Assembly (NCBI GenBank): GCA_025060615.1
Contig: JANXBS010000008.1
Span: forward strand, 62,001-126,000
Source of the DNA: Anaerolineae bacterium
GTDB lineage: Bacteria; Chloroflexota; Anaerolineae; DUEN01
Length of the DNA stretch: 64,000 nucleotides
Direction of reading: 5' to 3'
The position numbers were made by a program, and so were the translations under genes. Below, piece by piece: positions 22,863 through 38,940 of the stretch; position 1 is the first letter of the stretch; the number at the start of each line of letters is the position of its first letter. Under the pieces are notes generated by a model. It searched no databases, was not told the DNA's origin, and saw nothing but the letters and a program-made list of their open reading frames with translations.

Positions 22863-23879
22863 TCATTGCAGCGCGTCCACGATAGTTCGCACATTGTAGC
22901 GCATCATCTCAATGTAGGTTGGCGCGGGGCCGCTGGCGTCGGTGATCGAGTGCGTGAACAACTCGGTCACCACCTTGACACCGGCCTCCTGCGCGATCTG
23001 GCGCGCCAACCGGGGATTGCCGCCGGTCTCTAAGAAGATCGCTGGCGCGCCTGTCTCCTTGATACGCTCTATCAGTGCGGCCATCTCCTGTGCCGAGGGC
23101 GAAGCGCCAGTGCTGACGCTAGGGATCACCGTGCCGACGATCGTGAAGCCGTAACGGTCGGCGAAGTACCCGAAGGACTCGTGATTGGTCACCAGCAATC
23201 GACGCTCCGGCGGGATGGTCGCCACCTGCGCCAGGATCCATTGGTGGAGCTCGTTCAGCTCGGCGATATAGGCTGCCGCGTTAGCCACGTAGACCGCCTT
23301 GCCGGCCGGATCGGCCTGGCTCAAGCCATCACGAATGTTCTCTACATATTTGATAACCAACACCGGGTCGAGCCAGAAGTGCGGGTCCCCTTCGCGATGG
23401 TGATGTGCATACTCCTCTTCCTGCGCAGGCTCAGGCGTCGCTTCTCCGGAGTGGCCATCGCGTTCGTGTTCATGTTCATGTGCTATTTCGCTAGCGCCTG
23501 GTTCACGCATGGCAAGGCCGGCCGAGGCCGTGATGACTAGCCGTTCGCCGTCCACATTCTTCAACACCCTCTCCAGCCATCCCTCGAATCCGGCGCCATT
23601 GACGATCAGCACCTGGCTTGCGGCGATCCTGGCCACGTCCTGCGGTGTAGGTTCAAAGGCATGCGGATCTAGGCCAATCGGAATCAGTGAGGCAACCGTG
23701 AGACGGTCGCCGGCTACATTTTGCGCGATGTCGGCTAGGAAGGTCGTAACGGCCAGAACTTGAAGCCCAGGCTGGCCAGAGACAGGCGCAACTGGTGAGG
23801 GCGTGGGCACCACACAGCCCGCTAACACTGCTAGCCCTAGCGCAACGAGGAGCCCCCTCAAAATCCACAAGCGAGTCAT
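22863..23879 (-). CDS. znuA: Zinc/manganese ABC transporter substrate-binding lipoprotein (ZnuA/TroA family)
   Basis: 338 residues. Lipobox VLAGC with Cys22, then a Pro-rich linker. The A-9 cluster family is shown by DPHAFEPTPQDVARI (first His ligand), GDPHFWLDPVLVIKYVENI (second), LVTNHESFGYFADRYGF (third) and the ETGGNPRLARQIAQEAGV stretch. A His/Glu-rich loop (about 133-165, with EHEHERDGH and EEYAHHHREGDPH) precedes the second ligand, typical of zinc-specific members. It captures the metal outside the membrane for an ABC permease. No permease or ATPase gene is adjacent, so the transporter is incomplete here. A Fur-type palindrome lies 20 bases before the start codon, and a Fur-family regulator gene lies just upstream. 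Confidence 0.92.
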   Translation of the reverse strand: MTRLWILRGLLVALGLAVLAGCVVPTPSPVAPVSGQPGLQVLAVTTFLADIAQNVAGDRLTVASLIPIGLDPHAFEPTPQDVARIAASQVLIVNGAGFEGWLERVLKNVDGERLVITASAGLAMREPGASEIAHEHEHERDGHSGEATPEPAQEEEYAHHHREGDPHFWLDPVLVIKYVENIRDGLSQADPAGKAVYVANAAAYIAELNELHQWILAQVATIPPERRLLVTNHESFGYFADRYGFTIVGTVIPSVSTGASPSAQEMAALIERIKETGAPAIFLETGGNPRLARQIAQEAGVKVVTELFTHSITDASGPAPTYIEMMRYNVRTIVDALQ

Positions 23880-23898
23880 GAGTTTTGCCTCCCAGAAA

Positions 23899-23913
23899 TG
23901 ATAACAGTTATCA
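23899..23913. promoter_or_regulatory. Fur-family operator (7-1-7 palindrome) upstream of znuA
   Basis: TGATAAC-A-GTTATCA is a perfect dyad with seven-base arms around one base, the exact geometry of Fur/Zur/PerR boxes. It is close to the Bacillus Fur consensus TGATAATnATTATCA. It lies 20 bases upstream of the znuA ATG, ahead of GGGAGG. The nearby Fur-family gene (24072-24599) is the obvious candidate regulator. Confidence 0.8.
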
Positions 23914-24071
23914 ATTTTTATTCGAATTTTTGCGGCTCGGCATACCCGAACCGCTATATAGAAAACTCATTCTGGATAACAAAGGCCAACCGCCACTAAT
24001 CCGCTGAAAGGCGCGGCTTTGCTTTCGATGTCAGACAATCAAAACGTTCCCAGCAGAGAGGGCGTGCGCCA

Positions 24072-24599
24072 TCAGCCGTCCTGCATCGTCTCGATCTGAC
24101 AGTCGGGGCACAACCCGAACATCTCCAGCCAGTGCTCGCGCACCGAATAACCGGTCTGCGCTTCAACGGCAGCGATAACCGTTTCAATATCACAACCAGC
24201 GAACTCAGCCGCACGACGGCAACGTTGACAGATCACATGATGGCTATGCCGCTGCGCCATGCGATCCACCGTCTGCGACTCCATGTCTTCTTGCTCAATA
24301 CCGGCCGAGCTGAGCACATAGGTGCTACATCCCTCATCCAGGTGCAACTTTCGCACTAGGCCCAGTTCGCTCAAGATCTCTAGCGTCCGGTAAACGGTGA
24401 CCAATCCTAGGCTCGGCTGATGGATGCGCCCTAGGGCTAACAAGCGCGCGGGGGTCGCCTGGCCGCCAGCTTCACACAATGCCTCCAACACCGCGCGCCG
24501 CGCACGCGTGTTGGAATACCCAGCGCGCACAATCACTGCTAATAGATCTTCTACCGTACAGCTTCCAACCCCATATCGGTAATCTCTTTCAATTTTCAC
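24072..24599 (-). CDS. Fur-family metalloregulator (Zur-like)
   Basis: 175 residues. The N-terminal winged helix reads AGYSNTRARRAVLEALCEAGGQATPARLLALGR, then LGLVTVYRTLEILSELGLVRKLHL, which is the Fur recognition helix with the invariant TVYRTL. The dimer/metal half contains RHSHHVICQRCRRAAEFAGCD and LFGLCPDC-type ligands (here MFGLCPDCQIE), so both CxxC pairs of the structural zinc site are present. It represses metal uptake when metal is bound. The palindrome at znuA, 193 bases downstream in the same direction, supports a Zur role. Choice between zinc, iron and peroxide sensing rests on context only. Confidence 0.88.
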   Translation of the reverse strand: MKIERDYRYGVGSCTVEDLLAVIVRAGYSNTRARRAVLEALCEAGGQATPARLLALGRIHQPSLGLVTVYRTLEILSELGLVRKLHLDEGCSTYVLSSAGIEQEDMESQTVDRMAQRHSHHVICQRCRRAAEFAGCDIETVIAAVEAQTGYSVREHWLEMFGLCPDCQIETMQDG

Positions 24600-25614: not shown

Positions 25615-25903
25615 GTATGCCGGCTCGTCTTCGATGAGCCCCAGCAGCGGCGTGTCAAGCGCCACATAGGATGAATTCAACCGAATAGGCAGCCGTTCCA
25701 GCTTAAGGCATACATCGAATGTTAAACGATGATGCCGGGTGAAGGAGCTGTGCTGCCTATTTCTTTGCTGCGAGCAGATGATGCGATGTCGGTGCTGGCT
25801 ACAGCCCTCGGGCACCTTAAGCCGCCTGGGGAGGAAGCAACCTCCTCTAAGTGAAATCTAAGTGGCACGCTAAACCAGATTCCGGGGAAAGGAGGTGACT
25901 TCT
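25615..25903 (+). promoter_or_regulatory. Untranslated leader of the polyamine fusion gene
   Basis: No gene is supported in this stretch. It holds several potential stems: GGCTCGTC-TTC-GATGAGCC near 25623-25641 (one G/T wobble), GGTGC...GCACC near 25790-25816, and GGAGG-AAGCAA-CCTCC near 25830-25850. The length and the stems allow an RNA regulator such as a polyamine- or SAM-sensing leader, but I recognise no known riboswitch core. A minus-strand frame across it shows no coding features. Confidence 0.35.
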
Positions 25904-27412
25904 ATGTTGACCCTGAGACATCCAGAGTTGGCCCGGCTTTTGCGAGCCATCATACGAGAGGGAGATCCCTGGCAAGTGGCCGGCACGGCTGGCCCTCCCT
26001 TTCCACGGGTGGTCGAAGGGATCCATCAGTTGTTGGATATCGGAGCAATTCGCTTCGATGGCCAGCAGCTTATCCTCACAGAGACGGGTCAGGCTTTGGC
26101 CCAGGACCTAGGTGTGACCGTTGTCCCGCGCGCGACCTGCACCGTATGCCAGGGCTCTGGGATCGAGTTGAGCTTTCTAGAGGACATAGGCCGGCGATAT
26201 GAGCAACTGGTCAGGGATCGTCCTCGGCCGTTAGCCACCTACGATCAAGGCTATCTGACGACGGACTCGGTCATGCGGCGAGTGGCCTTGATGATTGCTC
26301 AAGGGGATGTCGAGGGGAAGGACATCGCAGTACTGGGTGACGACGACCTGGCCAGCATCGCCCTGACGTTGACCGGATTGCCTCGCTCAGTAGCAGTCGT
26401 TGAGATTGATCAACGGCTCTGCCAGTTCATCGAACAAAAGGCTCGCTCCGCAGGCCTGCCCATTACGGTATACTGTCGCAGCCTGACCGATCTTCTCCCT
26501 CAGGAACTGCTGAAGCGATTTGACGCGTTCCTGACCGATCCTACCGAGACCGAGCAGGGGCTGCTGCTGTTCCTGGAGAAGGGGTTCATGTGTCTGAAGC
26601 CCGGCGAGGGCCATGCTGGGTATTTCGGGATCACCCGAATCGAGGCCGGTATGGGCAAGTGGCATGTCTGGCAGCGCGAGCTACTCAGTCGCCATGCAAT
26701 CGCCTTTACCCACGTCCTTCCTAATTTCAGCCTCTATGCTAACTGGGAGGAGCCGGAGGAACAGCCCATCCCAGATTTGCCTCCCTTTGCGCATCGCTCA
26801 CCGGTCCCATGGTACCGCTCCACCTTCTGCCGGGTAGAGACGCTATCTGAGTTCCAACCGCCGTCTGATTTTACGATGGAGATCGGCCAAGAACTCTATA
26901 AGGACGAAGAGGTCTTAGATGTGGTCTGGCGCAGCCCAAATGCAGACAAAAGGCCGTTGGGCTCGGCGATGACGTCCACTCCGACGCCTTTCCCCACCAA
27001 CTTGACGCTGGGCCGCCACATCATCGCCGACTTCTGGAAATGTCGGAATCCAGAGCCTTTGCGCTATCTCAAGCAGGTGCTGGAACACGCCGTGCAGCAA
27101 GCGGGGGTCACTTTGTTGAACTTGAAGACCCATCGCTTCGTGCCCGATGGCTTTTCCGCTCTAGCACTGCTGGCCGAGTCTCATATCTCCATTCACGCAT
27201 GGCCTGAGCATGCCTATGTCGCCGTGGATGTCTTCACTTGCGGGAACGCCGACCCGGAGATAGTCATCGAGGCCCTCAAAGAGTACCTCCAACCGACCGA
27301 GTCTACCCAACTCGCCCTAGAACGCGGCCTAGGTCCTTTGCGGGTGACATCCGCCTTACCTCAGGAAGCCGAGGGCGCTCGCTCAGATTCGCCGATTGCG
27401 TTGAGGGCCTGA
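25904..27412 (+). CDS. Fusion of branched-chain polyamine synthase (BpsA/DUF43-like) and S-adenosylmethionine decarboxylase
   Basis: Start at ATG 25904 with AAAGGAGGTGA seven to eight bases upstream; 502 residues. The N-terminal ~350 residues match the BpsA aminopropyltransferase: a winged-helix-like head, a Cys pair (TCTVCQGSG), YDQGYLTTDSVMRRVALM, the catalytic GDDD at 145-148, and FDAFLTDPTETEQGL. BpsA adds aminopropyl groups to spermidine to make branched polyamines. After a short Pro/Thr linker (about 355-365) comes a complete class 1 prokaryotic AdoMet decarboxylase: LGRHIIADFWKC, then LLAESHISIHAWPEHAYVA with the self-cleavage site Glu425-Ser426 and DVFTCGNADP. It would produce decarboxylated AdoMet, the aminopropyl donor used by the first half. 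One chain therefore carries donor-making and donor-using steps. Each half has its key residues. Confidence 0.9.
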   Translation: MLTLRHPELARLLRAIIREGDPWQVAGTAGPPFPRVVEGIHQLLDIGAIRFDGQQLILTETGQALAQDLGVTVVPRATCTVCQGSGIELSFLEDIGRRYEQLVRDRPRPLATYDQGYLTTDSVMRRVALMIAQGDVEGKDIAVLGDDDLASIALTLTGLPRSVAVVEIDQRLCQFIEQKARSAGLPITVYCRSLTDLLPQELLKRFDAFLTDPTETEQGLLLFLEKGFMCLKPGEGHAGYFGITRIEAGMGKWHVWQRELLSRHAIAFTHVLPNFSLYANWEEPEEQPIPDLPPFAHRSPVPWYRSTFCRVETLSEFQPPSDFTMEIGQELYKDEEVLDVVWRSPNADKRPLGSAMTSTPTPFPTNLTLGRHIIADFWKCRNPEPLRYLKQVLEHAVQQAGVTLLNLKTHRFVPDGFSALALLAESHISIHAWPEHAYVAVDVFTCGNADPEIVIEALKEYLQPTESTQLALERGLGPLRVTSALPQEAEGARSDSPIALRA

Positions 27413-27532: not shown

Positions 27533-28771
27533 TTAAGCGCCCTTGGACACCTGTTCTGGCTCTAGCAGCCGCAATACTTTTGCGGCAGCCTCTACGATGC
27601 TGTCCATGTCAGCCCGGGTGCCCAGTAGCATATTCTGTCCCAGCCACACCGCTTCCTCATAACAGGCTCGCTCCGCTACCGGGCAGGGGCGATGCAGCCG
27701 CTCGATCTCGCCGAGATCCCGCCCAACCCAGCGCAGGTTATCTGCAGTGCCGCGGCGCACCGCGTTGGTAGCATACAGCGGCACATATCCGGGCGCACAA
27801 GGGATGCCTTCCGCCTTCATCGCCTCGATAAAGGCCTCACGTTTGGCGCCGCGGGCTAGACGAGCGTCGTAGCGGAAGATGAAAAGATGCCACGCGTGCT
27901 GAGTAACCCGAGGATCACGGGCGAGCGGGCGAAGTCCGATCTCGGCCAACTTTTGGCTCAGATAGCGGGCGTTCTCCTCCCGGCGAGCGCTCTGCTCCTC
28001 CAGGCGTGTCATCTGGGCCAGCAAGATCGCCGCCTGCCACTGCGACATCCGATAATTGCCGCCCCAATTCTCGTGCTGATACCACGCCCCCTCGCGGACC
28101 CGTCCCACATTGTGAATAGACCAACAGCGCTCGGCTAACTCGGCATTGTCGGTGAGGATGATTCCTCCCTCGCCGGCGTTCAGATTCTTGCTAGATTGGA
28201 AGCTGAAGGTGCCCATATCGCCAATGGCTCCAACGCGCCGGCCACGCCAGGAGGCAGCATGCGCCTGGGCGGCGTCTTCGATCAGAACGAGTCCGTGGCG
28301 ACGCGCCAGCGCAGACAAAGCGTCTAGATCCGCCGGACAGCCGCCAATGTGGACGGCGATGATCGCTCTGGTGCGTTCGGTGATCTGTGCCTCGGCCGCC
28401 TCAGGCGAGAGGTTGTACGTCTCCGGGTCAATGTCAGCAAAGACAGGCAACGCCCCCAGGGCCAGACAGGCGGTCGCAGTGGCCACGAAAGTGTAAGGCG
28501 GAATGACTACCTCGTCACCTGGCCCCACGCCCGCAGCGCGCAGCGCAATCTCCAGGGCCGCTGTGCCATTGGTCACGCACACGCCATAGCGGGCATCTTG
28601 AAACCTGGCGAAAGCCGCCTCGAACTCAGCGATTTTGTCACCGCCGATCCCCCATCGGCCCGAATGTAACACCTCCAATAGCGCTTGCTCCTCTTCCTTC
28701 CCCCACACCGGCCAGCGAGGGAAGGGCTCGGTGCGGACGGGAGTGCCACCGTGAATTGCCAGCTTGTCCAT
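27533..28771 (-). CDS. DegT/DnrJ/EryC1/StrS-family PLP aminotransferase
   Basis: 412 residues. The PLP lysine is Lys195 in FSFQSSKNLNAGEGG. IEDAAQAHAASWRG contains the conserved Asp that pairs with the cofactor ring. The N-terminal MDKLAIHGGTPVRTEPFPRWP is the form seen in sugar or inosose aminotransferases. It should transfer an amino group to a keto-sugar, either nucleotide-linked or a cyclitol. Last gene of a six-gene minus-strand operon of glycosyltransferases and membrane proteins. An AGAGGTGA ribosome site precedes the ATG. A truncated copy of a related gene lies at 55864. Confidence 0.9.
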   Translation of the reverse strand: MDKLAIHGGTPVRTEPFPRWPVWGKEEEQALLEVLHSGRWGIGGDKIAEFEAAFARFQDARYGVCVTNGTAALEIALRAAGVGPGDEVVIPPYTFVATATACLALGALPVFADIDPETYNLSPEAAEAQITERTRAIIAVHIGGCPADLDALSALARRHGLVLIEDAAQAHAASWRGRRVGAIGDMGTFSFQSSKNLNAGEGGIILTDNAELAERCWSIHNVGRVREGAWYQHENWGGNYRMSQWQAAILLAQMTRLEEQSARREENARYLSQKLAEIGLRPLARDPRVTQHAWHLFIFRYDARLARGAKREAFIEAMKAEGIPCAPGYVPLYATNAVRRGTADNLRWVGRDLGEIERLHRPCPVAERACYEEAVWLGQNMLLGTRADMDSIVEAAAKVLRLLEPEQVSKGA

Positions 28772-28804
28772 ATGTCACCTCTTAACGCGGAAGATGAATT
28801 CGGT

Positions 28805-29797
28805 TTACCAATAGTGTCGCCAATGCTCCTGGTAATACGCGATCGTCCGCGCCAACCCCTCCCGCAAGGGAACAGTCGGCCGCCAGCCTAGCGCTGCCTC
28901 AATGCGCGCATAGCTAGAATAGACGTCGCCGATATCAATGCGCTTGCGCTCCTCCGGCCAGGGCACCAGGCGAATGGAGCCTTGTCCGGCGATCTCGATG
29001 ATCATGCGGGCCAGATCTAATAGGCTGATGGGCTCAAGCCCACCCAGGTTGTACACCTGCCCGTCCGTCTCTGGACAGGCCCCTACACGCAGGAAGGCGT
29101 CTACCACGTCGTCCACGTAACATAGATCCCGGCGCTGTCGGCCATCGCCATAGATCTCGATCTCCTTACCCTCTACTGCCAACCGGATGAACCAGGCGAT
29201 GAACCCCTGCCGATTGTGTTTCATCAGTTGGCGCGGGCCGTAGGTGTTGGTGAGGCGAAGTGAGGTGGTATGCAAACCATAGGCGGTGTGGTAAACGATA
29301 TGGTACCACTCGCCGGCCAGCTTGTTGACCCCATTGATATCCATCGGGTGCTGCAGATGATGCTCATCTAACGGGAGATAGTCCGGTTTGCCATATTGCT
29401 GGCGGGTCCCAGCGTAAACGATTTTGATGTCGGGATTCTCGTGCCGACATGCCTCTAGGATGGACAATTGACTGCGGGCGTTGATCTCCAGGTCCGTGAA
29501 GGGGTCCCGCATCGAGTCCAGATGGCTGACCTGGCCTGCCAGGTTGAAGAGGACATCCTGCCCTTGCACGAGCGCGCGCATTGAGTAAGGGTCTCGTACG
29601 TCGGCAATGTTGACGCGCAGGCGATCCTCGTAGCCGGCGATATTGAACCAGTTGCCGCCGTAGTCAGGGATCAACGAATCCACCAGCAACACTTGCGCGC
29701 CCAGATCCACCAGCCGCCGGCCTAAGTTTGAGCCAATGAAGCCCAGCCCGCCGGTGATCAACACCCGTTTTCCAGCGTAGAAGCTCAAATAGTCCAT
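28805..29797 (-). CDS. NAD-dependent epimerase/dehydratase (extended SDR) lacking the catalytic Tyr
   Basis: Start chosen at ATG 29797 (MDYLSFYAGKRVLITGGLG), 330 residues; the longer frame overlaps the upstream DUF2079 gene. The Rossmann motif GGLGFIGSNLG is standard. The middle region reads YAGTRQQYGKPDYLP, and the expected YxxxK appears as INGVNKLAGEWYH, so the catalytic Tyr position is Asn while Lys is kept. This was checked on the nucleotide sequence and is not a reading error of mine. The family modifies nucleotide sugars in the cytoplasm. The substitution suggests a changed reaction or the use of another residue. Gap of 10 bases to the upstream gene and 33 to the downstream aminotransferase. 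Confidence 0.85.
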   Translation of the reverse strand: MDYLSFYAGKRVLITGGLGFIGSNLGRRLVDLGAQVLLVDSLIPDYGGNWFNIAGYEDRLRVNIADVRDPYSMRALVQGQDVLFNLAGQVSHLDSMRDPFTDLEINARSQLSILEACRHENPDIKIVYAGTRQQYGKPDYLPLDEHHLQHPMDINGVNKLAGEWYHIVYHTAYGLHTTSLRLTNTYGPRQLMKHNRQGFIAWFIRLAVEGKEIEIYGDGRQRRDLCYVDDVVDAFLRVGACPETDGQVYNLGGLEPISLLDLARMIIEIAGQGSIRLVPWPEERKRIDIGDVYSSYARIEAALGWRPTVPLREGLARTIAYYQEHWRHYW

Positions 29798-29807
29798 GCC
29801 CTTCGCC

Positions 29808-32252
29808 TCACCAACTCTCCTGGATCCGCACTGTAGCCAAGCGGATCTCGTTTCCTGCATCGCCTCCGGCCACGTCCCGAACCGGCAGTCGCTCGCCCGT
29901 GACTGGATCGTACAGCCCGATCACGAGTGTATACTCGCCTGTCGGCAGGTCGGCTGGCAATTCCAACCGGTGAGCGTCCGGCTGCCATCCCGTCTGCCAG
30001 CCGGTGGTGGGCGCCGGACCGAACCAAGCTGGAGTCGCATCCGCCTGCGCCACGGTCTGTCCCTCGCCGTCTCGTAGATGTACGAACACGGTATAGTCTC
30101 GTCCAATAGGCTCCACAACACGCCAGAGTAGATCGAACAGCAATGGCTCACCCACCTTCGCCTGCGGCGGCACGCGAGCACCGGCGAGCTCAATCGCCGT
30201 CCCTACGGAAAGAGCATGATCCCCCTTCCAGCGTGCCGGCCAATCCGATTCGGTTAGGAGGCGCAATCGCCGTCCCTCCCGAACGAATGGCGGAAAGACG
30301 GCCCACGTCCCCTCGAACACGCGAGCCCCATAGGAGCTAACCACGGGCAAGCGCACCCTGTTAGGCTGGGAAGACGTTCCGCTAGAGCGCCTGTACACCG
30401 CCACAGCCAAGGCCCACCGATCCGGCAGGAACCACGGCACCGTCTCCACGACGATGATCTCCCCCGGCCGCCAGCGCTCCGGTGGATACCAGAGCGTCGC
30501 CACGGGCGGGCGCTGGGACGGATCCTCAGCTACATGGCCATCAGCGGTCACGAAGAACGGCCATAGGCTGAGACCTTCAGGCAGCGGCTGAAGGGCTTCC
30601 CAATACGTCCGCGCCTGGGTCAGCCGCCGTTTGCCGTCATCGACGATGTCATAGCCGCGAAAGGTGAGCAGACCAGCGAAATCTACGAAGGTAGGATAAG
30701 TCGGTGATTGCCTCCCTCGTGCGAAGGAGAAAAACTCATCGGGAAGCTGGCTGGCACACGTCTGGGCGGGCGGCCCTAAAAGCACATAGCCATCGGCGGC
30801 ATCTCGGATACAGAAACGCCGACTCGCCAGCAGTTCATCAAAGCGGCGACGTAAATCGGCCGGATGCATGTCAGTCGTGCCGTTCACCTCCAGCAACACG
30901 TAAGCTGCGTCGCCCAGTGCTGGGAACTTGTAAATGCGCTCCCGATGGCTGAGGTGTGGATATAACGCGGTGGTAACGCTAACCGGCGCATCACTGGGGA
31001 TCTGACGAAAGAAACGCTCCGCCAGGCGGTGGTGCTCCGTGATCTCAGGCCAGCGAAACTCCCCCCCCAGCGGTGTCCAACCTTTCACTCGATGATATCC
31101 TACGCTCCAGAGCAATAGCCATCCTAACACCAGCCCCAAGGCTAACGCTGGCTGCCAACGCCGGCTAAGTCCTTGGACCGCCCGCGCTGTGCCGACGATG
31201 GCAGCGACGACGAAATAGGGGACGAGCGGCGCTGAGTAATGCAGTTCGCCCGAGTATTGGGCCGGATAGGCGCTGAGCAAGTTGGCCGCCAGGATCGGCG
31301 CGGAGAGGAGCAGCAGCTCGGGCCCTAGGAGCGCCAGCCCACCCACTGAGGCCAGCAGCCCGCCTAGGTAGCGAAGCCGCGCTGGCTCGGTGATGATCGC
31401 CCATACCAGCGCCGGCTTGGTAATCAGGCTGCGAGCGATGTCCGTCGCCGAATCACCTAGCGCGCCGTAGCGCTGAAAGTAGACTGACTGTGCCTCGCCG
31501 TAGACAGGAGCCGCATGTGCCGGGATGATAACGAAGACGGCCACGCCAAACCAGGCGAGCGAGATACACGCCACCACCAAACCCGCCCAACGCCCGCCTG
31601 CCCGCATCATAGCCCATACTCCCAGCAGAAAGCTGAGCAGGGCCATCTCCTCCTTGACGGCAGCAACTACAAGGGAGGCGACCGTAAACCGTACCCACCT
31701 ACCCTGCTCCGTATACCACAACGCCAGCAAAATAGGCAACACAGCCAACGGGGCCGCGTGAAATTCGGCCAAATTAGCCGCCTCAAGAGCCGGGAACAGG
31801 AGATAGACGAGCGCGAAGGCGATCCCCGCTGCGCTCACCCAGCGCTCAGCCACAAGAGCTCGCAGCCGTGCTCGCGCCATCTGGTAAACCGGCCACGCGC
31901 CCAGTGCAATCACAGCCGACTGCAGTACCAGCAGCGCTCGCACGTCGTCCCATACCCAGAAGACCAACGAGACAAGCGCGAAGATCGGCTCCACGTGATC
32001 GGTTAGGCGTGTGCTGATCTGCTCACCCTTGATCTCTTGGACGAAGCGGCCATGGGCTGTGTTCCAGATAGCTAGGTCCATCTGCCCGAGATCAGCCATG
32101 TGCGTCTTCAGCGCCAGATGCGGGCGGATGGAGAGAACGGAAAAGCCCGCGGTGTAGGCCAGGATTAAGCCCCAAAGGACGATCACCGCCCATCTCTGGC
32201 CAGACACCGGTTCAAAACCGGCACTTGGTTTCCGATCCGATCGCTCAACCAT
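29808..32252 (-). CDS. DUF2079 multi-spanning membrane protein (glycosyltransferase-like)
   Basis: 814 residues. The first 400 residues hold about 10-11 membrane helices with the DUF2079 hallmarks near the start: HMADLGQMDLAIWNTAHGRFVQ, then LTDHVEPIFALVSLVFW. These resemble GT-C glycosyltransferases that use polyprenyl-phosphate sugars, with the first loop carrying acidic residues. The C-terminal half is a large extracytoplasmic beta-rich part, with a region near 690-800 (PPQAKVGEPLLFDLLWRVVEP, then YTVFVHLRDGEGQTVAQAD) like sugar-binding jelly-roll domains. Likely role: sugar transfer onto a surface glycan or protein. It overlaps both neighbours' reading frames by a few bases, a sign of tight coupling. 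Confidence 0.8.
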   Translation of the reverse strand: MVERSDRKPSAGFEPVSGQRWAVIVLWGLILAYTAGFSVLSIRPHLALKTHMADLGQMDLAIWNTAHGRFVQEIKGEQISTRLTDHVEPIFALVSLVFWVWDDVRALLVLQSAVIALGAWPVYQMARARLRALVAERWVSAAGIAFALVYLLFPALEAANLAEFHAAPLAVLPILLALWYTEQGRWVRFTVASLVVAAVKEEMALLSFLLGVWAMMRAGGRWAGLVVACISLAWFGVAVFVIIPAHAAPVYGEAQSVYFQRYGALGDSATDIARSLITKPALVWAIITEPARLRYLGGLLASVGGLALLGPELLLLSAPILAANLLSAYPAQYSGELHYSAPLVPYFVVAAIVGTARAVQGLSRRWQPALALGLVLGWLLLWSVGYHRVKGWTPLGGEFRWPEITEHHRLAERFFRQIPSDAPVSVTTALYPHLSHRERIYKFPALGDAAYVLLEVNGTTDMHPADLRRRFDELLASRRFCIRDAADGYVLLGPPAQTCASQLPDEFFSFARGRQSPTYPTFVDFAGLLTFRGYDIVDDGKRRLTQARTYWEALQPLPEGLSLWPFFVTADGHVAEDPSQRPPVATLWYPPERWRPGEIIVVETVPWFLPDRWALAVAVYRRSSGTSSQPNRVRLPVVSSYGARVFEGTWAVFPPFVREGRRLRLLTESDWPARWKGDHALSVGTAIELAGARVPPQAKVGEPLLFDLLWRVVEPIGRDYTVFVHLRDGEGQTVAQADATPAWFGPAPTTGWQTGWQPDAHRLELPADLPTGEYTLVIGLYDPVTGERLPVRDVAGGDAGNEIRLATVRIQESW

Positions 32253-33273
32253 CCGGTGCCGCCTCGACCACTGCCGACGCGCCCACGAGCTCTCGCCGCG
32301 AGCGCGTGGAGCGTCGCCTGTGCCATAGTAGCAAAGCCATGCCCGCGCCCATGACCTCGCCCATGGTCAACCAGATCCGGCCCACCAGCGAGGCGACTAC
32401 AGGGATCGGCGCGGTGAGAAAACCGCTGAGCAGCCACATCATCGCCCCCTCGCGCACCCCCAGCCCGCTAGGTGTCAGCAGGCTAATGTAGCCGATGAAG
32501 TACGCAAGGACGAATGCCATCGCCAGGTGCGGCGTCAGCACCCAGGACAAGGGCGTCAGCGCTCGCACTACCGCGGCGAATCCCAGCCCGGCCAAAGCCC
32601 AGGACGCCCAATAGCCCGGAAGCATCTGTATGATCTGCCGGGTGGTCAGGGTCACGCGCAGCGGTGGACGGCGCAGGAGACGTAGGACCAGGTTGAGCCC
32701 TCGCTCCATCCATCGCGGCCGTATCGCCACCAACAGCGCCCCGACCATCACCGCCAAAGGGATCGTCAGCCGTAACATCTCAATATGGCCAGCCCATGCG
32801 AAGTAAACCGCTGCCAGCGTCACCACGGATGTAGCCGAGAGCGCCTGGTGCACAACCACGCTGGTTAACGTTGCCTCAGCCGGCACGTCCTCTTCCCCAG
32901 CTAGGGCGGCCATGCCAACGAATTGCCAAACGTTGCCGGGGATATATCGCACCAAGTTGGACAGGAACCAGATCATCCCCGCCTGCCGGTACGTCAGCCG
33001 GCCTCCCAGGTTGCACAGGCAGGTACGCCACAACGCGATCTCCAACGCCCAGCTCAATGCCAGCGGCGGAAATCCCAACAGAAACCAGCCGGGCGACAAA
33101 CGCCATGAATAAGCTTGTAGCGCCGACCACTGCCCGTGCAACAACGCAGCGATAAACCCCATCCCCAGCAGCAACGCCAGCGCTGAGACAAGGTTACGCC
33201 AACGGAATCCACGACGATCACTTTCGCCCCTTGCCCTTCTTCTGCCGTTCGTTGCCCATGGTCTATCGTCCAT
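32245..33273 (-). CDS. LPG-synthase transmembrane / UPF0104 (AglD-like) membrane protein
   Basis: 342 residues with about eight membrane helices. Family features are the N-terminal SWRLSPGWFLLGFPPLALSW, YIPGNVWQFVGMAALA, and the C-terminal SLLTPSGLGVREGAMMWLL (the conserved P-x-GLGxREG motif). Proteins of this family are linked to lipid or glycolipid transfer and flipping beside glycosyltransferases, as in AglD-type and MprF-like membrane domains. No lysyl-transfer domain is attached, so lysylphosphatidylglycerol synthesis is not implied. It overlaps the GT4 gene by 11 bases and the DUF2079 gene by 8. Confidence 0.85.
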   Translation of the reverse strand: MDDRPWATNGRRRARGESDRRGFRWRNLVSALALLLGMGFIAALLHGQWSALQAYSWRLSPGWFLLGFPPLALSWALEIALWRTCLCNLGGRLTYRQAGMIWFLSNLVRYIPGNVWQFVGMAALAGEEDVPAEATLTSVVVHQALSATSVVTLAAVYFAWAGHIEMLRLTIPLAVMVGALLVAIRPRWMERGLNLVLRLLRRPPLRVTLTTRQIIQMLPGYWASWALAGLGFAAVVRALTPLSWVLTPHLAMAFVLAYFIGYISLLTPSGLGVREGAMMWLLSGFLTAPIPVVASLVGRIWLTMGEVMGAGMALLLWHRRRSTRSRRELVGASAVVEAAPDG

Positions 33274-34510
33274 GATCAGGCACCTGCCATCGCCTATCCA
33301 GCGAAGTCAATCGGGCAAAGTGTGCCAGGTATCGGCGCGCTAGATGCGGCCATCCTAGTTCGTTCTCGATGCGCGCTCGTCCTGCCGCTCCCATGCGCAT
33401 CCGCATATCTGGATCATCCACCAGTCGGGTCAGAGCCTGTGCCAGCGCGTCCACATCCCCCTCCGGTACGAGCAGGCCCGTCACCCCATCCACGATAGCT
33501 AGCGGGTTGCCAGCCACATTCGATCCCACTACCGGGCGCGCGCAGCTCATGGCGTCGAGGACGCAGACGTTCAACCCGTCGGCCGGCCTACTTACCGACG
33601 GCATGACTAACACATCGGCCAGGTTGTAATAGACGGCAAGCTCGTCCTTGGGCACCGTTCCCACCCAACGCACGCGCTCGACGATGCCCAGCTGCTCCGC
33701 TAGCCGTTGCCAGTTCGCCATTTCATCGCCCTGACCCACCATTACAGCGACCACCGGACGATCACACAATGGCGGCCGCGCCATCGCCCGCAACAGCACG
33801 TCAAATCCCTTCTTGGGCACCATACGCCCCACGGCCAACAATACCACCGCCTGACCAGGAATGTCCAGACGGGCACGCAGCTCGGCTACGCCGGCCAGGC
33901 TTGGGCGTAGCACCTCGGGATCGGTGCCGTAGAGGATCAGGTCAAACTTGCCTGGATCGGCGCCTAGCGCAATCGCAGCGTCGCGCAGTTCGACACTATT
34001 GGCCGTGAGCAAAGCCGCCTGCCGGAAGGCAAGGCGGGCCATCGCCCGAAACCAAGGATTCTGCCCCGCCACCCGCGCGTCAGAGCCAGGAATTGAAACC
34101 ACTAGCGGGATACCCAGCCAGCGACCCACCATTGCGCCGATGAAACCGTTGGGCAACACCCAATGCGCGTGCAACACGTCCGGCCGTTCGCGGCGAGCCC
34201 AACACGACACGACGGCGATGCCCGCTGCGAATAGCGCTGGGCTAAGCAGATAAGCTTCCAACCGCAGCGCTAGGTCAGAGCGCATGGTGCGCATGTACCC
34301 CAGGCGGTGCAGCCGATCCGGCCAGACATAGCGATACAAGTGCAGTCGCACCGGACCATCCAGTGGCCGCTGGTAGGCCGGATCGTAGGGGGCTAGGACA
34401 GTCACCTGATGGCCTTGCCTCGCCCACTCTTGGCACAGCGCCTCGACGAATATGCCGCTAAAATCACCCGGAAACCGGGGGTAATTGTGGGTCAAAACGC
34501 CAATGTGCAT
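33263..34510 (-). CDS. Family 4 glycosyltransferase (GT-B fold)
   Basis: About 415 residues from ATG 34510 (MHIGVLTHNYPRFPGDFSG); a TTG at 34528 is an alternative start and neither has a strong ribosome site. GT-B features are clear: the N-terminal glycine-rich loop PRFPGDFSGIFVEAL, HAHWVLPNGFIGAMV, the linker LLAVGRMVPKKGFDVLLRAM, and the C-terminal nucleotide-sugar site VLVMPSVSRPADGLNVCVLDAMSCARPVVGS (in parts), with an E-to-N-type variation in the usual EGxPxxxLEA motif. It transfers a sugar from a nucleotide donor to a lipid-linked or oligosaccharide acceptor at the cytoplasmic face. Second gene of the operon after GT2. Confidence 0.88.
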   Translation of the reverse strand: MHIGVLTHNYPRFPGDFSGIFVEALCQEWARQGHQVTVLAPYDPAYQRPLDGPVRLHLYRYVWPDRLHRLGYMRTMRSDLALRLEAYLLSPALFAAGIAVVSCWARRERPDVLHAHWVLPNGFIGAMVGRWLGIPLVVSIPGSDARVAGQNPWFRAMARLAFRQAALLTANSVELRDAAIALGADPGKFDLILYGTDPEVLRPSLAGVAELRARLDIPGQAVVLLAVGRMVPKKGFDVLLRAMARPPLCDRPVVAVMVGQGDEMANWQRLAEQLGIVERVRWVGTVPKDELAVYYNLADVLVMPSVSRPADGLNVCVLDAMSCARPVVGSNVAGNPLAIVDGVTGLLVPEGDVDALAQALTRLVDDPDMRMRMGAAGRARIENELGWPHLARRYLAHFARLTSLDRRWQVPDHGR

Positions 34511-34534
34511 TGGGCAAAGAGCAGACAAAGGATG

Positions 34535-35518
34535 CTATCTCTTTTGTTCGAGCCGATCTGACTGCAAGAGCGCCTCTTCCAGGCTAGCGATGTGCTCCTC
34601 CTGATTGACGATCAGCTCGGCCACGAAGCCAATCAGAATCAGCAAGAGGCCGGAGATGGCTAGGCCGCCGGCCAGCCAGAAGATGGGGCGCTTTTGGGTC
34701 TCAAACGCAAGCCACAAGTAAGCTAGGTAGAGGTAGATTAGCCCACTGGCGACCAGCGCGCCAAGCCCCAAGCCACCGAAGAAACGCATGGGCGCCCGCG
34801 AGAAGGTGAGCAAGAACCAGACCACTAGCACGTCGAGCAGCGAAATAGGGATCCGCCCGATGCCGAACTTGGACCGCCCGGCTGGCCGTGGACGATAAGG
34901 GGTCTGCACCTCGCCCACGCGAAATCCCTGGTGAGCTGCGATCATTAAGAGAAACCGATGCCAGTCAGACCTCAACGGCGGTAACGCCTCGATCACCTCC
35001 CGCCGAAACGCTTTGATCCAGTTCATATCGTGGGCCTGCACGCCGAACAACCAGCGGCATGTCCAGTTGTAGATAGCCGAGGCTATCACCTTTCCATCGC
35101 GCCGGCCCTGACGCCAGCCGGCGACCACATCGTACCCCTCGTCGAGTTTGCCAAGCAGGAGAGGGATATCAGTCTCCGGATCGGATTCCAAATCGGCGGG
35201 CAGGAAGATGATCACCTCCCCCTGTGCGGCTCGGAAGCCGGCACGTAAGGCTGCCGTCAGCCCCAAGCCCCGCCGGTGCGAGATCACGCGTAGAAACGGG
35301 TGGTTACTTTGTAATGCCCTTAACTTCTCGCCGGTGCCATCCGTTGAGCCGTCGTCCACCACAATAAGCTCGCCGGTGATGCCCAAATGCCGCAGGGTTC
35401 GCTCCGTCTTCTCGACCACCTGGTCAATAGTAAGCGCCTCGTTGCGGGCGGGGATCAACACGGTCACTTGTGGCCGATCCGGCGAGCTCTTCCCTACTAG
35501 AGAGACATCCCGCCACAT
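34535..35518 (-). CDS. Family 2 glycosyltransferase with C-terminal membrane helices (DPM1/GtrB-like)
   Basis: 327 residues with GGAAGGAG ahead of the ATG. The GT-A domain (about 15-235) starts [25 protein letters not shown], has the DDGSTDGT motif and the metal-binding equivalent in [14 protein letters not shown]. Two to three hydrophobic helices follow ([39 protein letters not shown], in parts, and [25 protein letters not shown]). This is the layout of polyprenyl-phosphate mannose/glucose synthases. It would load a sugar onto the lipid carrier used by GT-C enzymes such as the DUF2079 protein three genes away. First gene of the minus-strand operon. Confidence 0.9.
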
Positions 35519-35564
35519 ATCTCCTTCCCCGGAACAGAAATCCGTACGATTCCCAGCCGATACT

Positions 35565-36364
35565 TGTTAGGGCCATTATATCTCAATAGGTTGTTGTAGA
35601 CATACGCATACCGGTTCAGCGCCTGCGGATTCCCCGGCTCCGGCACAAGGGGCTGGGCATCGTCTTCTCATCAAAGTTCTTCCCCTCGGCCAGCGTGGAC
35701 AGGTGAAGTACCTCAGTCACCGGCGCGTGTACGGCATCTCTCAGCACCCGCTCCCCTCATCCAGCAGGAACTGCTGGCCAAGGGTCGGATCCCCCTTCGA
35801 GGCCCGCACGGTGAAGACCAACGGACGGTTAAAGGCGCGCAGCTTCAAGGCGGCGCCGGGTTCCAGCCACCTCATCGCCCAGGTGAAGGCCCGCCGGGCC
35901 GGGTCGCAGCGCCAGAGGGAAGGCGCACCCGGTGGGGTTACCTCCGAGCCGGTCGGGAGGGTGGCCAGGGACAGGACCTCCTCCAAGACCTGTGCACCTT
36001 AATGTTCCAGCCGCCAGCGCAGCGTCACCGTCTCACCAGGAGGCACTGCCTGCGGCTGCGCAGTGACTTCTAGATGCAAGCAGGACAGATAGAGGTCGCC
36101 AAATAAGGGGGCTGCGGCTCGGGCAGCGGAGGGGGGAGGGGCATCCCCTCGGGGGTGGACAGTGGAGAGAGGAAGAGATCCGGCCCCCTGGCAGATGCCA
36201 TCGCCGGCCCAGGACTCTGGATCAACGGCAAATAGACGGCAGGAAGAGGCATCACCCCAAGCAAAGGCGGCTGCCGTGCATCGTCCAACGGTAGAAACAA
36301 CCCCATCGCCGTGAACAAATAGGGCGAGATACATCAACACCGGCAAGGCATAGGCGACCTGCAT
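35565..36364 (-). pseudogene. Decayed secreted protein with Ig-like and RHS-core remnants
   Basis: No intact gene spans this region, but coherent protein pieces follow each other on the minus strand in changing frames. First, PLPAVYLPLIQSPG (near 36240), the YLPLI motif of exported proteins. Then LEVTAQPQAVPPGETVTLRW, an Ig/DUF11-like domain start, broken by an in-frame TAA at 35999-36001 and continuing in the same frame (VLSLATLPTGSEVTPPGAP ... PLVFTVRASKGDPTLGQQF). A frameshift near 35755 leads to ERVLRDAVHAPVTEVLHL. Finally PEPGNPQALNRYAYVYNNLL (35570-35655), a near-typical RHS-repeat core sequence. The order suggests one former surface protein with an RHS core, disabled by at least one stop and two or three frameshifts. 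Confidence 0.7.
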
Positions 36365-36441
36365 ATCAGTTCAGAACAAGCCGGCTGAGGTGCTTGATGT
36401 GATGAATAGTTTCTGTGGCCTTCGTCAAGGGGTCCCATCCA

Positions 36442-37572
36442 CTACCCTTGCACTCTCGTAAAGACTTGGGCTGAGCCCACCATTCCTCGGATAGCCATGA
36501 CCACCTCTTGTTGCTGCTGTTCGGTCAGCTCCGGATACATCGGCAGCGAGAGGACCTCCTGGCTATACTGCTCGCTAATAGGGAACGTCCCCTTGGCATA
36601 TCCTAGGCTCCTATAGGCCGGCTGCAAATGCAGCGGAACCGGGTAATGAATGCCTACGCCGATGCCACGCGCCTGCAGCGCCTGTGCCACTTCATCGCGG
36701 CGCGGTATGCGCACCACATAGCAATGGTAGACATGCTCTACGTAGGGCAACGCCGTGGGAACGACAACCACCGTGCCGGCTAGCAGCTCTGCGTAGCGAC
36801 AGGCTCGCTCGCGGCGGGCGGCATTCCAGGCATCCAAGTGTGGCAGCTTAGCCCTCAGGATCGCCGCTTGTAGCGCGTCCAAGCGAAGTCCCCACCCTAG
36901 CTCATTGTGAAGATACTTGCTGGAACGGCCGTGGTCGCGCAGCGAGCGGACGCGAGCCGCTAAATCGGCGTCGTTAGTCACCACAGCCCCTGCATCGCCA
37001 TAAGCCCCCAAGTTCTTGCTGGGATAAAAGCTGAAGCAGGCGATATCGCTCAGACTGCCGACGCGCCGCCCCTTATAGCGTGCGCCATGGGCCTGCGCTG
37101 CGTCTTCGATCACCCATAGGCGATGTGCCCGAGCGATGGCTCGGATCTCATCCATCTCGGCCGGCTGGCCATAGAGATGCACCGGGATGATCGCCCGCGT
37201 GCGCGACGTGATGGCAGCCTCGATCCGTTCCGGGCTTAAGTTGTACGTGATCGGGTCAATGTCCACAAATACTGGCCGTGCCCCTGCCTGAGAGATGGCC
37301 TCCGCTGTGGACATGAACGTGAAGGGAGTAGTAATGACCTCATCCCCTGGGCCGATGCCGCAGGCTTTCAGCGCTAGGAAAAGGGCAGCAGTCCCTGAGT
37401 CTACCCCCACTGCGTAGTTTGCCTCGCAGTAGGATGCGAATGCCTCCTCAAAGGCATTCACTTCCGGCCCTAGGATGAACGCGGTGGACTCGACAACGCG
37501 ACGAATTGCCGCGTCGATCTCGTCCTGGATGGATCGGTACTGAGCTTTCAGGTCAACAAGCGGGATTGCCAT
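36442..37572 (-). CDS. DegT/DnrJ/EryC1/StrS-family aminotransferase (WbpE-like)
   Basis: 376 residues. PLP lysine Lys186 in CFSFYPSKNLGAYGDAG, preceded by WVIEDAAQAHGARYKG. The N-terminus IPLVDLKAQYRSIQDEIDAAI and LGPEVNAFEEAFA match the WbpE/WlbC/DesV group, which aminates 3-keto or 4-keto nucleotide sugars. With the nearby Gfo/Idh dehydrogenase (WbpB/WlbA-like) and hexapeptide acetyltransferase (WbpD/WlbB-like), it fits synthesis of a 2,3-diacetamido uronic acid. Only six bases separate it from the upstream ATPase gene, so it ends the operon that carries the two ATPases. Confidence 0.88.
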   Translation of the reverse strand: MAIPLVDLKAQYRSIQDEIDAAIRRVVESTAFILGPEVNAFEEAFASYCEANYAVGVDSGTAALFLALKACGIGPGDEVITTPFTFMSTAEAISQAGARPVFVDIDPITYNLSPERIEAAITSRTRAIIPVHLYGQPAEMDEIRAIARAHRLWVIEDAAQAHGARYKGRRVGSLSDIACFSFYPSKNLGAYGDAGAVVTNDADLAARVRSLRDHGRSSKYLHNELGWGLRLDALQAAILRAKLPHLDAWNAARRERACRYAELLAGTVVVVPTALPYVEHVYHCYVVRIPRRDEVAQALQARGIGVGIHYPVPLHLQPAYRSLGYAKGTFPISEQYSQEVLSLPMYPELTEQQQQEVVMAIRGMVGSAQVFTRVQG

Positions 37573-37578
37573 AAACGG

Positions 37579-38940
37579 CTACTCTTCGAGAGGAGTATGC
37601 GGAGACGAAGCATCCCCTGTCCCTGTGGTCGTACCCGTATTTTGGCGATCGAGCGTTTCCGCCTCCAACAGCGGCTCGATCTCCCAGCGTAGCCGCTCGA
37701 TCTCGCGGCGCGTGATGTTGATCTCGTTAATCAGATCCAGCGGAACGCGCAGTCCGAACTGGCTCCTTTGTCGTTCGAGCTCGCGTAGATTGTCCTGTTG
37801 GATACGCAACTGCTCCTGTAGATAAGCCAGCTCCTGTCGGCGGCCGCGTAACACCAGCTCCTTCGTGCTACGGTCTGTGATCTTGCTTTGAGTTTCGGTG
37901 ACCAGCTCAGCGTAGTGTTCTCGCAGCCAATTGCCCAAAAACTGATTGCCGACGGCCAGTTGCCCGTAAACCTGGCGCAGATATCCCAGCCTGACTAGGC
38001 CATAGACGAAGGCTTTCACCGTGGCTGGCGGCTGATCCACAAGGGCAGAGAGATCGGCCTCGTGCACAAGGCCGCGCTCCGATACCGCCAAAAGGATGCG
38101 GCGTTCCGTCGGCGCAAGATAGCGGAAGTCAATCATGCAAAAGCTGGCCAGCATATCATCCACCGCGAGGTCTGCCTCGGTGGGCATACGGAGCGAATTA
38201 TCCTCCTGCCACAGGCGCTGACATAGCACCTGCATCAAGTACGGGTGACGATTGGTGTGCTCGCATATGGCTTCCACCACCTCGTCGCTGGCCGAGACGG
38301 GCAGATCGCTCTGGGTTTGGCGGATCAAAGCCTGTGATGACTGCCAGTCTAATTCCCACAAGTTACGCAGCCCAAACCCGAACAGAAACGGTGAAGTCGC
38401 CCATTCATCGGCCAGATCATTCACCTCGGTGAGCGCTTTGGTGCTGGTCATGATCACCCGCAGGCTCTGGCCAGCCTGCAGCGCCTTACGCAGCCGCTGG
38501 AGCTCTTGGGCGTCGCGCCGGCCCACGTTGATAAGCGCTTCCGCCTCGTCTATCAGCAGCAAGATCTTGCGGCCTTGGCTTTGAGCAGCCCGCTGGACGA
38601 TGCGCAACAGATCACGCACCTCGGCGTATTCCAGGCTGGATACGTCTATCCCTAGCGCGCTCAGTCGCCCGGCGGCATCCTCAAAAGCGTAATATAGCTC
38701 GCGCGCTAGGTCCGCGCCAGTCTCACATCCCTGCATGTCCCAGAAGATCGGCACATATGGCCCTCCCTGGGCCGAGGTCAGAAACTCGATCTGGCGCAGC
38801 AGTGAGGTCTTCCCCATACGCCGGTTCCCCACGACCCACACGGCATCATCTGGGCTATTGAGCAGGTGATCAATCAGCCGATGGCGACCGTAATGGTGTC
38901 GGCCGATCACATAGTTCCCCACAATATAAGGATTATGCAC
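37579..38940 (-). CDS. Soluble AAA/STAND-type ATPase with winged helix and coiled coil
   Basis: 453 residues, GTG start with GAGG eight bases upstream. It opens NPYIVGNYVIGRHHYGR, a family-like lead-in to the P-loop GNRRMGKTSLLRQ (Lys44). Walker B is KILLLIDEAEAL (near 130) and a sensor-like IMTSTKAL follows. After the ATPase comes a winged-helix-like part (about 275-345, LLAVSERGLVHEADLSALV) and then a charged coiled coil (about 350-435, ELAYLQEQLRIQQDNLRELE). The core resembles archaeal/bacterial STAND or Cdc6-like ATPases. Its lead-in and P-loop match the C-terminal domain of the upstream 1068-residue protein, so the two are paralogous. No membrane helix is present. A role as cytoplasmic partner or output of the sensor is inference. 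Confidence 0.85.
   Translation of the reverse strand: MHNPYIVGNYVIGRHHYGRHRLIDHLLNSPDDAVWVVGNRRMGKTSLLRQIEFLTSAQGGPYVPIFWDMQGCETGADLARELYYAFEDAAGRLSALGIDVSSLEYAEVRDLLRIVQRAAQSQGRKILLLIDEAEALINVGRRDAQELQRLRKALQAGQSLRVIMTSTKALTEVNDLADEWATSPFLFGFGLRNLWELDWQSSQALIRQTQSDLPVSASDEVVEAICEHTNRHPYLMQVLCQRLWQEDNSLRMPTEADLAVDDMLASFCMIDFRYLAPTERRILLAVSERGLVHEADLSALVDQPPATVKAFVYGLVRLGYLRQVYGQLAVGNQFLGNWLREHYAELVTETQSKITDRSTKELVLRGRRQELAYLQEQLRIQQDNLRELERQRSQFGLRVPLDLINEINITRREIERLRWEIEPLLEAETLDRQNTGTTTGTGDASSPHTPLEE

What the first reader, a model, noticed from the sequence alone, without database searches (positions are those of the whole stretch)
25904..27412. Single-chain fusion of branched-polyamine synthase and AdoMet decarboxylase
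Seen: one 502-residue frame with a complete BpsA-like half (GDDD at 145-148) and a complete SpeD half with its self-cleavage site Glu425-Ser426. Known: BpsA uses decarboxylated AdoMet, the product of SpeD, and makes branched polyamines in thermophiles. Inference: the fusion channels the donor between sites. SpeD matures by self-cleavage, so processing would leave the BpsA part joined to the SpeD beta chain and release the alpha chain as a separate peptide held in the complex. Branched polyamine synthesis suggests growth at high temperature.
Basis: partly seen in the sequence, partly recalled or inferred. Interest (0 to 1): 0.75.

Follow-up and report, generated by a model that had tools for sequence, protein, structure and literature searches.

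The report
Branched-polyamine synthase fused to SAM decarboxylase
In a few Chloroflexota bacteria one gene encodes both the enzyme that makes the aminopropyl donor and the enzyme that uses it to build branched polyamines, a two-step enzyme fusion that I could not find described for this pair.

Summary
ATG 25904 to stop 27412 is one open frame of 502 residues: a BpsA half (Pfam BpsA_C, E 4.5e-66) joined to a class 1b SpeD half (AdoMet_dc, E 1.7e-31). The motifs GDDD145-148, E425/S426, H431 and C446 are all present.

It is not an assembly accident. All 9 sampled Thermoflexus species (72-75% identity) and 6 genomes of a second Anaerolineae genus (46-48%) carry the same architecture. Both halves evolve under purifying selection. 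SpeD halves of the fusions form one clade (100/98). A Calditrichota genome shows bpsA and speD in the same frame, separated by one stop codon, the likely pre-fusion state.

Most likely it is a bifunctional enzyme: SpeD makes decarboxylated AdoMet, and BpsA transfers the aminopropyl group by its ping-pong mechanism. BpsA's acidic carrier segment (GQELYKDEE, 328-336) now leads into a disordered linker. Channelling is possible but not shown.

Two inferences are weak. The fusion also occurs in a lineage that looks mesophilic. The window's genome has no match to spermidine synthase, diamine decarboxylase or agmatinase families, so its acceptor, and hence its product, is unknown.

AdoMetDC-aminopropyltransferase fusions are known. 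This is a new variant with another transferase family and reversed order.

The parts
25890..25895 (+). Shine-Dalgarno aggagg, 8 nt before ATG 25904
   Evidence: sequence read directly
25904..27412 (+). bpsA-speD fusion ORF, 502 aa plus stop
   Evidence: conserved architecture in 15 other genomes
25904..26911 (+). BpsA half, residues 1-336 (BpsA_C at residues 94-336)
   Evidence: Pfam PF01861 E 4.5e-66; PDB 5xnc E 2.1e-73; Foldseek 5xnc E 2.1e-33
26336..26347 (+). GDDD motif, residues 145-148
   Evidence: aligned to the GDDD of Tk-BpsA; invariant in fusions and BpsA paralogues
26885..26911 (+). acidic carrier segment GQELYKDEE, residues 328-336
   Evidence: aligned to GQELYDDEE of Tk-BpsA, whose acidic residues carry the aminopropyl group (PMC12979288); lower model confidence here
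26912..27001 (+). interdomain linker, residues 337-366
   Evidence: pLDDT below 50 at 341-366; conserved within Thermoflexus, 53% identical between Thermoflexus and window
27002..27331 (+). SpeD (class 1b AdoMet decarboxylase) half, residues 367-476
   Evidence: PF02675 E 1.7e-31, TIGR03330 over cut-off, Foldseek 1tlu E 2.7e-12
27176..27181 (+). predicted self-cleavage site Glu425/Ser426 (Ser becomes the pyruvoyl group); His431 and Cys446 correspond to Tm His68 and Cys83
   Evidence: alignment to T. maritima SpeD, catalytic residues named in PMC10407285, invariant in A1
27332..27409 (+). C-terminal tail, residues 477-502, disordered and poorly conserved
   Evidence: pLDDT below 50; high dN in this segment

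Best explanation
A bifunctional polyamine enzyme. The C-terminal SpeD half cleaves itself at Glu425/Ser426 to form a pyruvoyl cofactor and decarboxylates AdoMet. The N-terminal BpsA half binds the resulting decarboxylated AdoMet at the GDDD site, moves its aminopropyl group onto the acidic segment 328-336, and from there onto a polyamine acceptor, giving N-branched polyamines. After cleavage there are two chains, BpsA-beta (1-425) and alpha (426-502, 77 aa). The covalent link fixes the two activities at 1:1 and keeps the donor source next to its user. Shown here: architecture, conservation, motifs, selection on both halves, predicted folds. Inferred from characterised relatives: both activities and cleavage. 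Speculative: channelling, and the branched nature of the product.
For: Single frame with SD. Both families far over cut-off. Active-site residues kept, including S426/H431/C446 and Pro434, which probably corresponds to the proline that separates AdoMetDC from SpeD-derived arginine decarboxylases. Only SpeD and only BpsA found in the genome. Same fusion in 9 Thermoflexus and 6 other Anaerolineae genomes. dN/dS about 0.1 in both halves. Fused SpeD halves monophyletic. AlphaFold2 gives two confident domains joined by a disordered linker, matching 5xnc and 1tlu. In a Calditrichota genome bpsA and speD abut in frame with one stop between, and bpsA-speD-speE run in that order in G088.
Against: No activity is measured. 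The own genome has no detected source of spermidine, so substrate and product are unknown. The fused BpsAs form a clade on a long branch away from Tk/Tt BpsA, so acceptor specificity may differ. One of the five proposed carrier positions is Lys333 instead of Asp. Channelling has no support beyond the linkage.
Confidence: 0.78

Rival explanations
1. The fusion is the organism's only aminopropyltransferase and has changed or broadened its acceptor: it makes linear spermidine/thermospermine or aminopropylates an imported di- or triamine, with branched products minor or absent.
For: No spermidine synthase in the window genome except a 522-aa multi-membrane SpeE-like ORF; no SpeA/SpeC/CASDC, OKR_DC, pyruvoyl ADC or agmatinase. 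Fused BpsAs are a separate clade.
Against: Thermoflexus and most of the second genus carry the fusion together with a true SpeE, so there the fusion need not make spermidine. MAG gaps cannot be excluded, though five absent families at 97.8% completeness is unlikely by chance.
Confidence: 0.25
2. The SpeD half is not an AdoMet decarboxylase but a neofunctionalised arginine or ornithine decarboxylase, supplying agmatine/putrescine rather than dcAdoMet.
For: Such SpeD-derived enzymes exist in bacteria (PMC10407285), and the window genome lacks other diamine-forming decarboxylases of the families tested.
Against: It is the only SpeD found in the genome, and BpsA needs dcAdoMet. TIGR03330 AdoMetDC over cut-off. 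Residues around the site match T. maritima AdoMetDC, including the HxWPE proline, although I could not see the figure that marks the diagnostic positions.
Confidence: 0.07
3. Two independent enzymes on one chain after an operon fusion, without catalytic coupling; kept because co-expression and a 1:1 ratio are enough.
For: Long disordered linker, poorly conserved between lineages; pre-fusion operon order exists.
Against: Retention across two genera and the window's lineage suggests some benefit, which co-expression alone could also supply.
Confidence: 0.45

Closest known systems
BpsA, N4-bis(aminopropyl)spermidine synthase (Tk-BpsA 5xnc, Tt-BpsA 6j27; PF01861)
   Same: Fold, GDDD motif, acidic C-terminal segment
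   Different: Known ones are stand-alone and end just after the acidic segment; here the chain continues into SpeD. About 37% identity; N-terminus shorter.
Bacterial class 1b AdoMetDC/SpeD (T. maritima 1tlu)
   Same: Fold, cleavage Ser, His, Cys and substrate-stacking Phe/Trp positions
   Different: C-terminal part of a larger chain, so the beta chain carries BpsA.
AdoMetDC-aminopropyltransferase fusions (Pelagibacter, PMC11107197; delta-proteobacterium and Krumholzibacteria, and animal spermine synthase, PMC12803844)
   Same: Donor-making and donor-using enzymes on one chain
   Different: There SpeD is N-terminal and the transferase is the SpeE family; here SpeD is C-terminal and the transferase is BpsA. 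Cleavage therefore leaves the transferase on the beta chain, not on the alpha chain.
SpeD-SpeDC double-pyruvoyl fusions (PMC10407285)
   Same: Self-cleaving SpeD domain in a fusion
   Different: Partner is an ornithine decarboxylase, not an aminopropyltransferase.

Membership tests
BpsA (EC 2.5.1.128) | BpsA_C domain over curated cut-off | tested here: met
   223 bits vs cut-off 27
BpsA (EC 2.5.1.128) | GDDD motif | tested here: met
   residues 145-148, invariant
BpsA (EC 2.5.1.128) | acidic carrier segment after the catalytic domain | tested here: met
   GQELYKDEE vs GQELYDDEE in Tk-BpsA; four of five acidic positions kept
BpsA (EC 2.5.1.128) | makes branched polyamines by ping-pong transfer | not testable with these tools
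   needs enzyme assay
BpsA (EC 2.5.1.128) | spermidine source in the same genome (SpeE or CASDH/CASDC); a setting, not a defining property of the enzyme | tested here: not met
   no bona fide SpeE, no PF02784 (CASDC) in G000; SpeE is present in 8 of 9 Thermoflexus genomes
Class 1b AdoMetDC/SpeD | TIGR03330 over cut-off | tested here: met
   111.4 vs 75.65 bits
Class 1b AdoMetDC/SpeD | Ser63, His68, Cys83 equivalents | tested here: met
   S426, H431, C446
Class 1b AdoMetDC/SpeD | diagnostic proline separating AdoMetDC from SpeD-type ADC | tested here: inconclusive
   P434 is present in the HAWPE motif; the marked position in the paper's figure could not be seen
Class 1b AdoMetDC/SpeD | self-cleavage and AdoMet decarboxylation | not testable with these tools
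   needs SDS-PAGE and assay
SpeD-SpeE type fusion | SpeE-family (PF01564) transferase, SpeD N-terminal | tested here: not met
   transferase is PF01861 and N-terminal

The most novel reading that the evidence does not exclude
The acidic segment that carries the covalently bound aminopropyl group has become part of the tether between the two catalytic domains, so donor production and covalent aminopropyl relay are mechanically coupled. In the window's organism this one gene is the whole aminopropyl branch of polyamine synthesis, working on imported amines without SpeE.
Probability: 0.2. Interest if true: 0.7.

Novelty: new variant of a known kind. Interest (0 to 1): 0.5.

Why it matters
It shows that nature linked AdoMet decarboxylase to the branched-polyamine synthase as well as to the SpeE family, in reversed order. 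Its relatives belong to Thermoflexus, a genus with a cultured member (T. hugenholtzii). The fusion puts BpsA's covalent carrier segment at an interdomain junction, which makes donor hand-over directly testable. Its presence in mesophile-like genomes, with tandem BpsA copies, questions the view that BpsA marks heat-loving organisms.

Tried and rejected
Frame error or assembly artefact: rejected, 15 other genomes. Upstream GTG 25895 as start: rejected because it overlaps the SD. Riboswitch or other RNA upstream: no Rfam hit at gathering level; weak sRNA hits near 27.4 kb below cut-off taken as chance. Promoter scan: nothing above chance. Shared neighbourhood with Thermoflexus: none beyond the gene itself. 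Foreign DNA by composition: no sign, its GC3 is 0.68, close to its neighbours' 0.67-0.76. Mapping carriers by residue number: the review's numbering and the 5xnc chain differ by two residues at the tail relative to GDDD, so I mapped by the ELYDDEE motif. Own-genome 16S for temperature: none found. Literature searches for a BpsA-SpeD fusion found none, but subscription papers and protein-architecture databases were not searchable, so novelty is not proven.

Full report
What is there. Window 25904-27412 (+) is a single open frame of 502 residues, preceded by aggagg at a spacing of 8 nt. Residues 94-336 match Pfam BpsA_C at E 4.5e-66 and residues 372-475 match AdoMet_dc at E 1.7e-31; the second also passes NCBIfam's AdoMet decarboxylase equivalog. 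By sequence the nearest solved structures are Thermococcus kodakarensis BpsA (5xnc, E 2.1e-73) and Thermotoga maritima SpeD (1tlu, E 1.7e-21). The gene stands alone: a Rex-like repressor gene runs the other way upstream and a DegT-type aminotransferase gene converges on it.

Active sites. GDDD lies at 145-148. Counting from the 1tlu alignment, T. maritima S63, H68 and C83, the residues named as catalytic in PMC10407285, correspond to S426, H431 and C446; F49, S55, W70 and E72 correspond to F412, S418, W433 and E435 (from the alignment; roles of the last four from my own knowledge). All are invariant in the nine fusions aligned. [quoted passage not shown] The matching segment here, GQELYKDEE (328-336), keeps four of five acidic positions and leads straight into the linker; Thermoflexus has RELYEDED or QELYEDED, the second genus DELYQDAE or DELYSDAE. 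The AlphaFold2 model (mean pLDDT 81.5) shows two confident domains with residues 341-366 and 477-502 disordered; Foldseek returns 5xnc and 1tlu for the two parts.

Distribution. Of 396 genomes sampled in the class, the full-length fusion is in the window genome, in 9 genomes of genus g13 (73-75% identity) and in 6 of genus g60 (46-48%). Record titles of a second collection show g13 to be Thermoflexus and g60 to be Anaerolineae genomes from, for example, groundwater. In g60 each fusion is followed by one or two further BpsA-only genes with GDDD. Other class members have BpsA and SpeD as separate genes. The window's own family otherwise lacks BpsA, and nothing around the gene is shared with Thermoflexus, so transfer of the single gene is plausible; its GC3 fits the neighbours.

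Origin. The fused SpeD halves form one clade (100/98) and the fused BpsA halves plus the g60 paralogues form one clade (100/99), with the inner order unresolved. One fusion event followed by BpsA duplication in g60 is the simplest reading. A Calditrichota contig (L069) has bpsA and speD in the same frame with a single stop between them (GERR*AMEHLGRH), and G088 has the order bpsA-speD-speE. Loss of one stop codon from such an operon would make the fusion. Alternatively the Calditrichota stop is a late split or a sequencing error. dN/dS in both halves is near 0.1 between Thermoflexus species.

Metabolic setting. The window genome (97.8% complete) holds no other SpeD or BpsA. The only Spermine_synth match is a 522-aa multi-membrane protein at E 4e-9. 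There is no match to PF02784 (SpeA, SpeC, CASDC), PF01276, PF01862 or PF00491. Thermoflexus genomes tested lack a convincing match to the three decarboxylase families too, but have SpeE in 8 of 9 genomes, the exception being 76% complete, and arginase-family proteins in the 5 genomes tested; a spermidine/putrescine ABC transporter is reported for T. hugenholtzii (PMC8129789). The acceptor in the window organism is therefore probably imported or made by an untested route. I did not test the window genome for a transporter.

Temperature. The IVYWREL fraction is 0.429 for window proteins, 0.444 for Thermoflexus and 0.386 for g60, giving rough growth optima of 67, 81 and 26 C by a published regression recalled from memory; the charged-minus-polar measure is 0.039, 0.095 and 0.017. 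16S G+C is 0.65 in Thermoflexus and 0.58 in one g60 genome. The window organism is probably a moderate thermophile, but BpsA or the fusion alone does not show it.

Mechanism and rivals. The best reading is an AdoMet decarboxylase and BpsA-type aminopropyltransferase on one chain, processed to BpsA-beta plus a 77-residue alpha chain. Channelling is unproven, and simple co-expression is an equally good reason for the fusion; that third rival concerns why the halves are joined and is compatible with the best explanation of what they do. The main functional doubt is the acceptor and product.

Known or new. AdoMetDC fused to SpeE-family transferases is described (PMC11107197, PMC12803844), with SpeD at the N-terminus. 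In the literature I could search there is no BpsA-SpeD fusion; the 2026 BpsA review mentions neither fusions nor Chloroflexota. I rate it a new variant of a known kind.

Noticed in passing
L035:598-2166 (+), L041:1345-2700 (-): Single ORFs that join a pyruvoyl-dependent arginine decarboxylase (PF01862) to a spermidine-synthase-type transferase (PF01564), followed by an agmatinase gene, in G086 (the window's own family) and G052: a second polyamine enzyme fusion, apparently arginine to N1-aminopropylagmatine in one chain.
   Followed up: partly
L069:7466-9049 (+): Calditrichota contig with bpsA and speD in the same frame separated by one stop codon, the probable pre-fusion state.
   Followed up: yes
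L063, L065, L066, L067 downstream of the fusion: One or two extra BpsA-only genes with GDDD in tandem after the fusion, in genomes with mesophile-like composition.
   Followed up: partly
window genome G000: No match for spermidine synthase, diamine-forming decarboxylases (three families) or agmatinase/arginase; it is the only one of 15 genomes tested without the last.
   Followed up: partly
22863-24599: Zinc-uptake ZnuA-type binding protein gene with a Fur-family regulator gene upstream on the same strand, an ordinary metal-uptake pair.
   Followed up: no
27533-38940: Run of minus-strand genes that look like sugar/surface polysaccharide work (DegT aminotransferase, epimerase, glycosyltransferase, DUF2079 membrane protein).
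   Followed up: no
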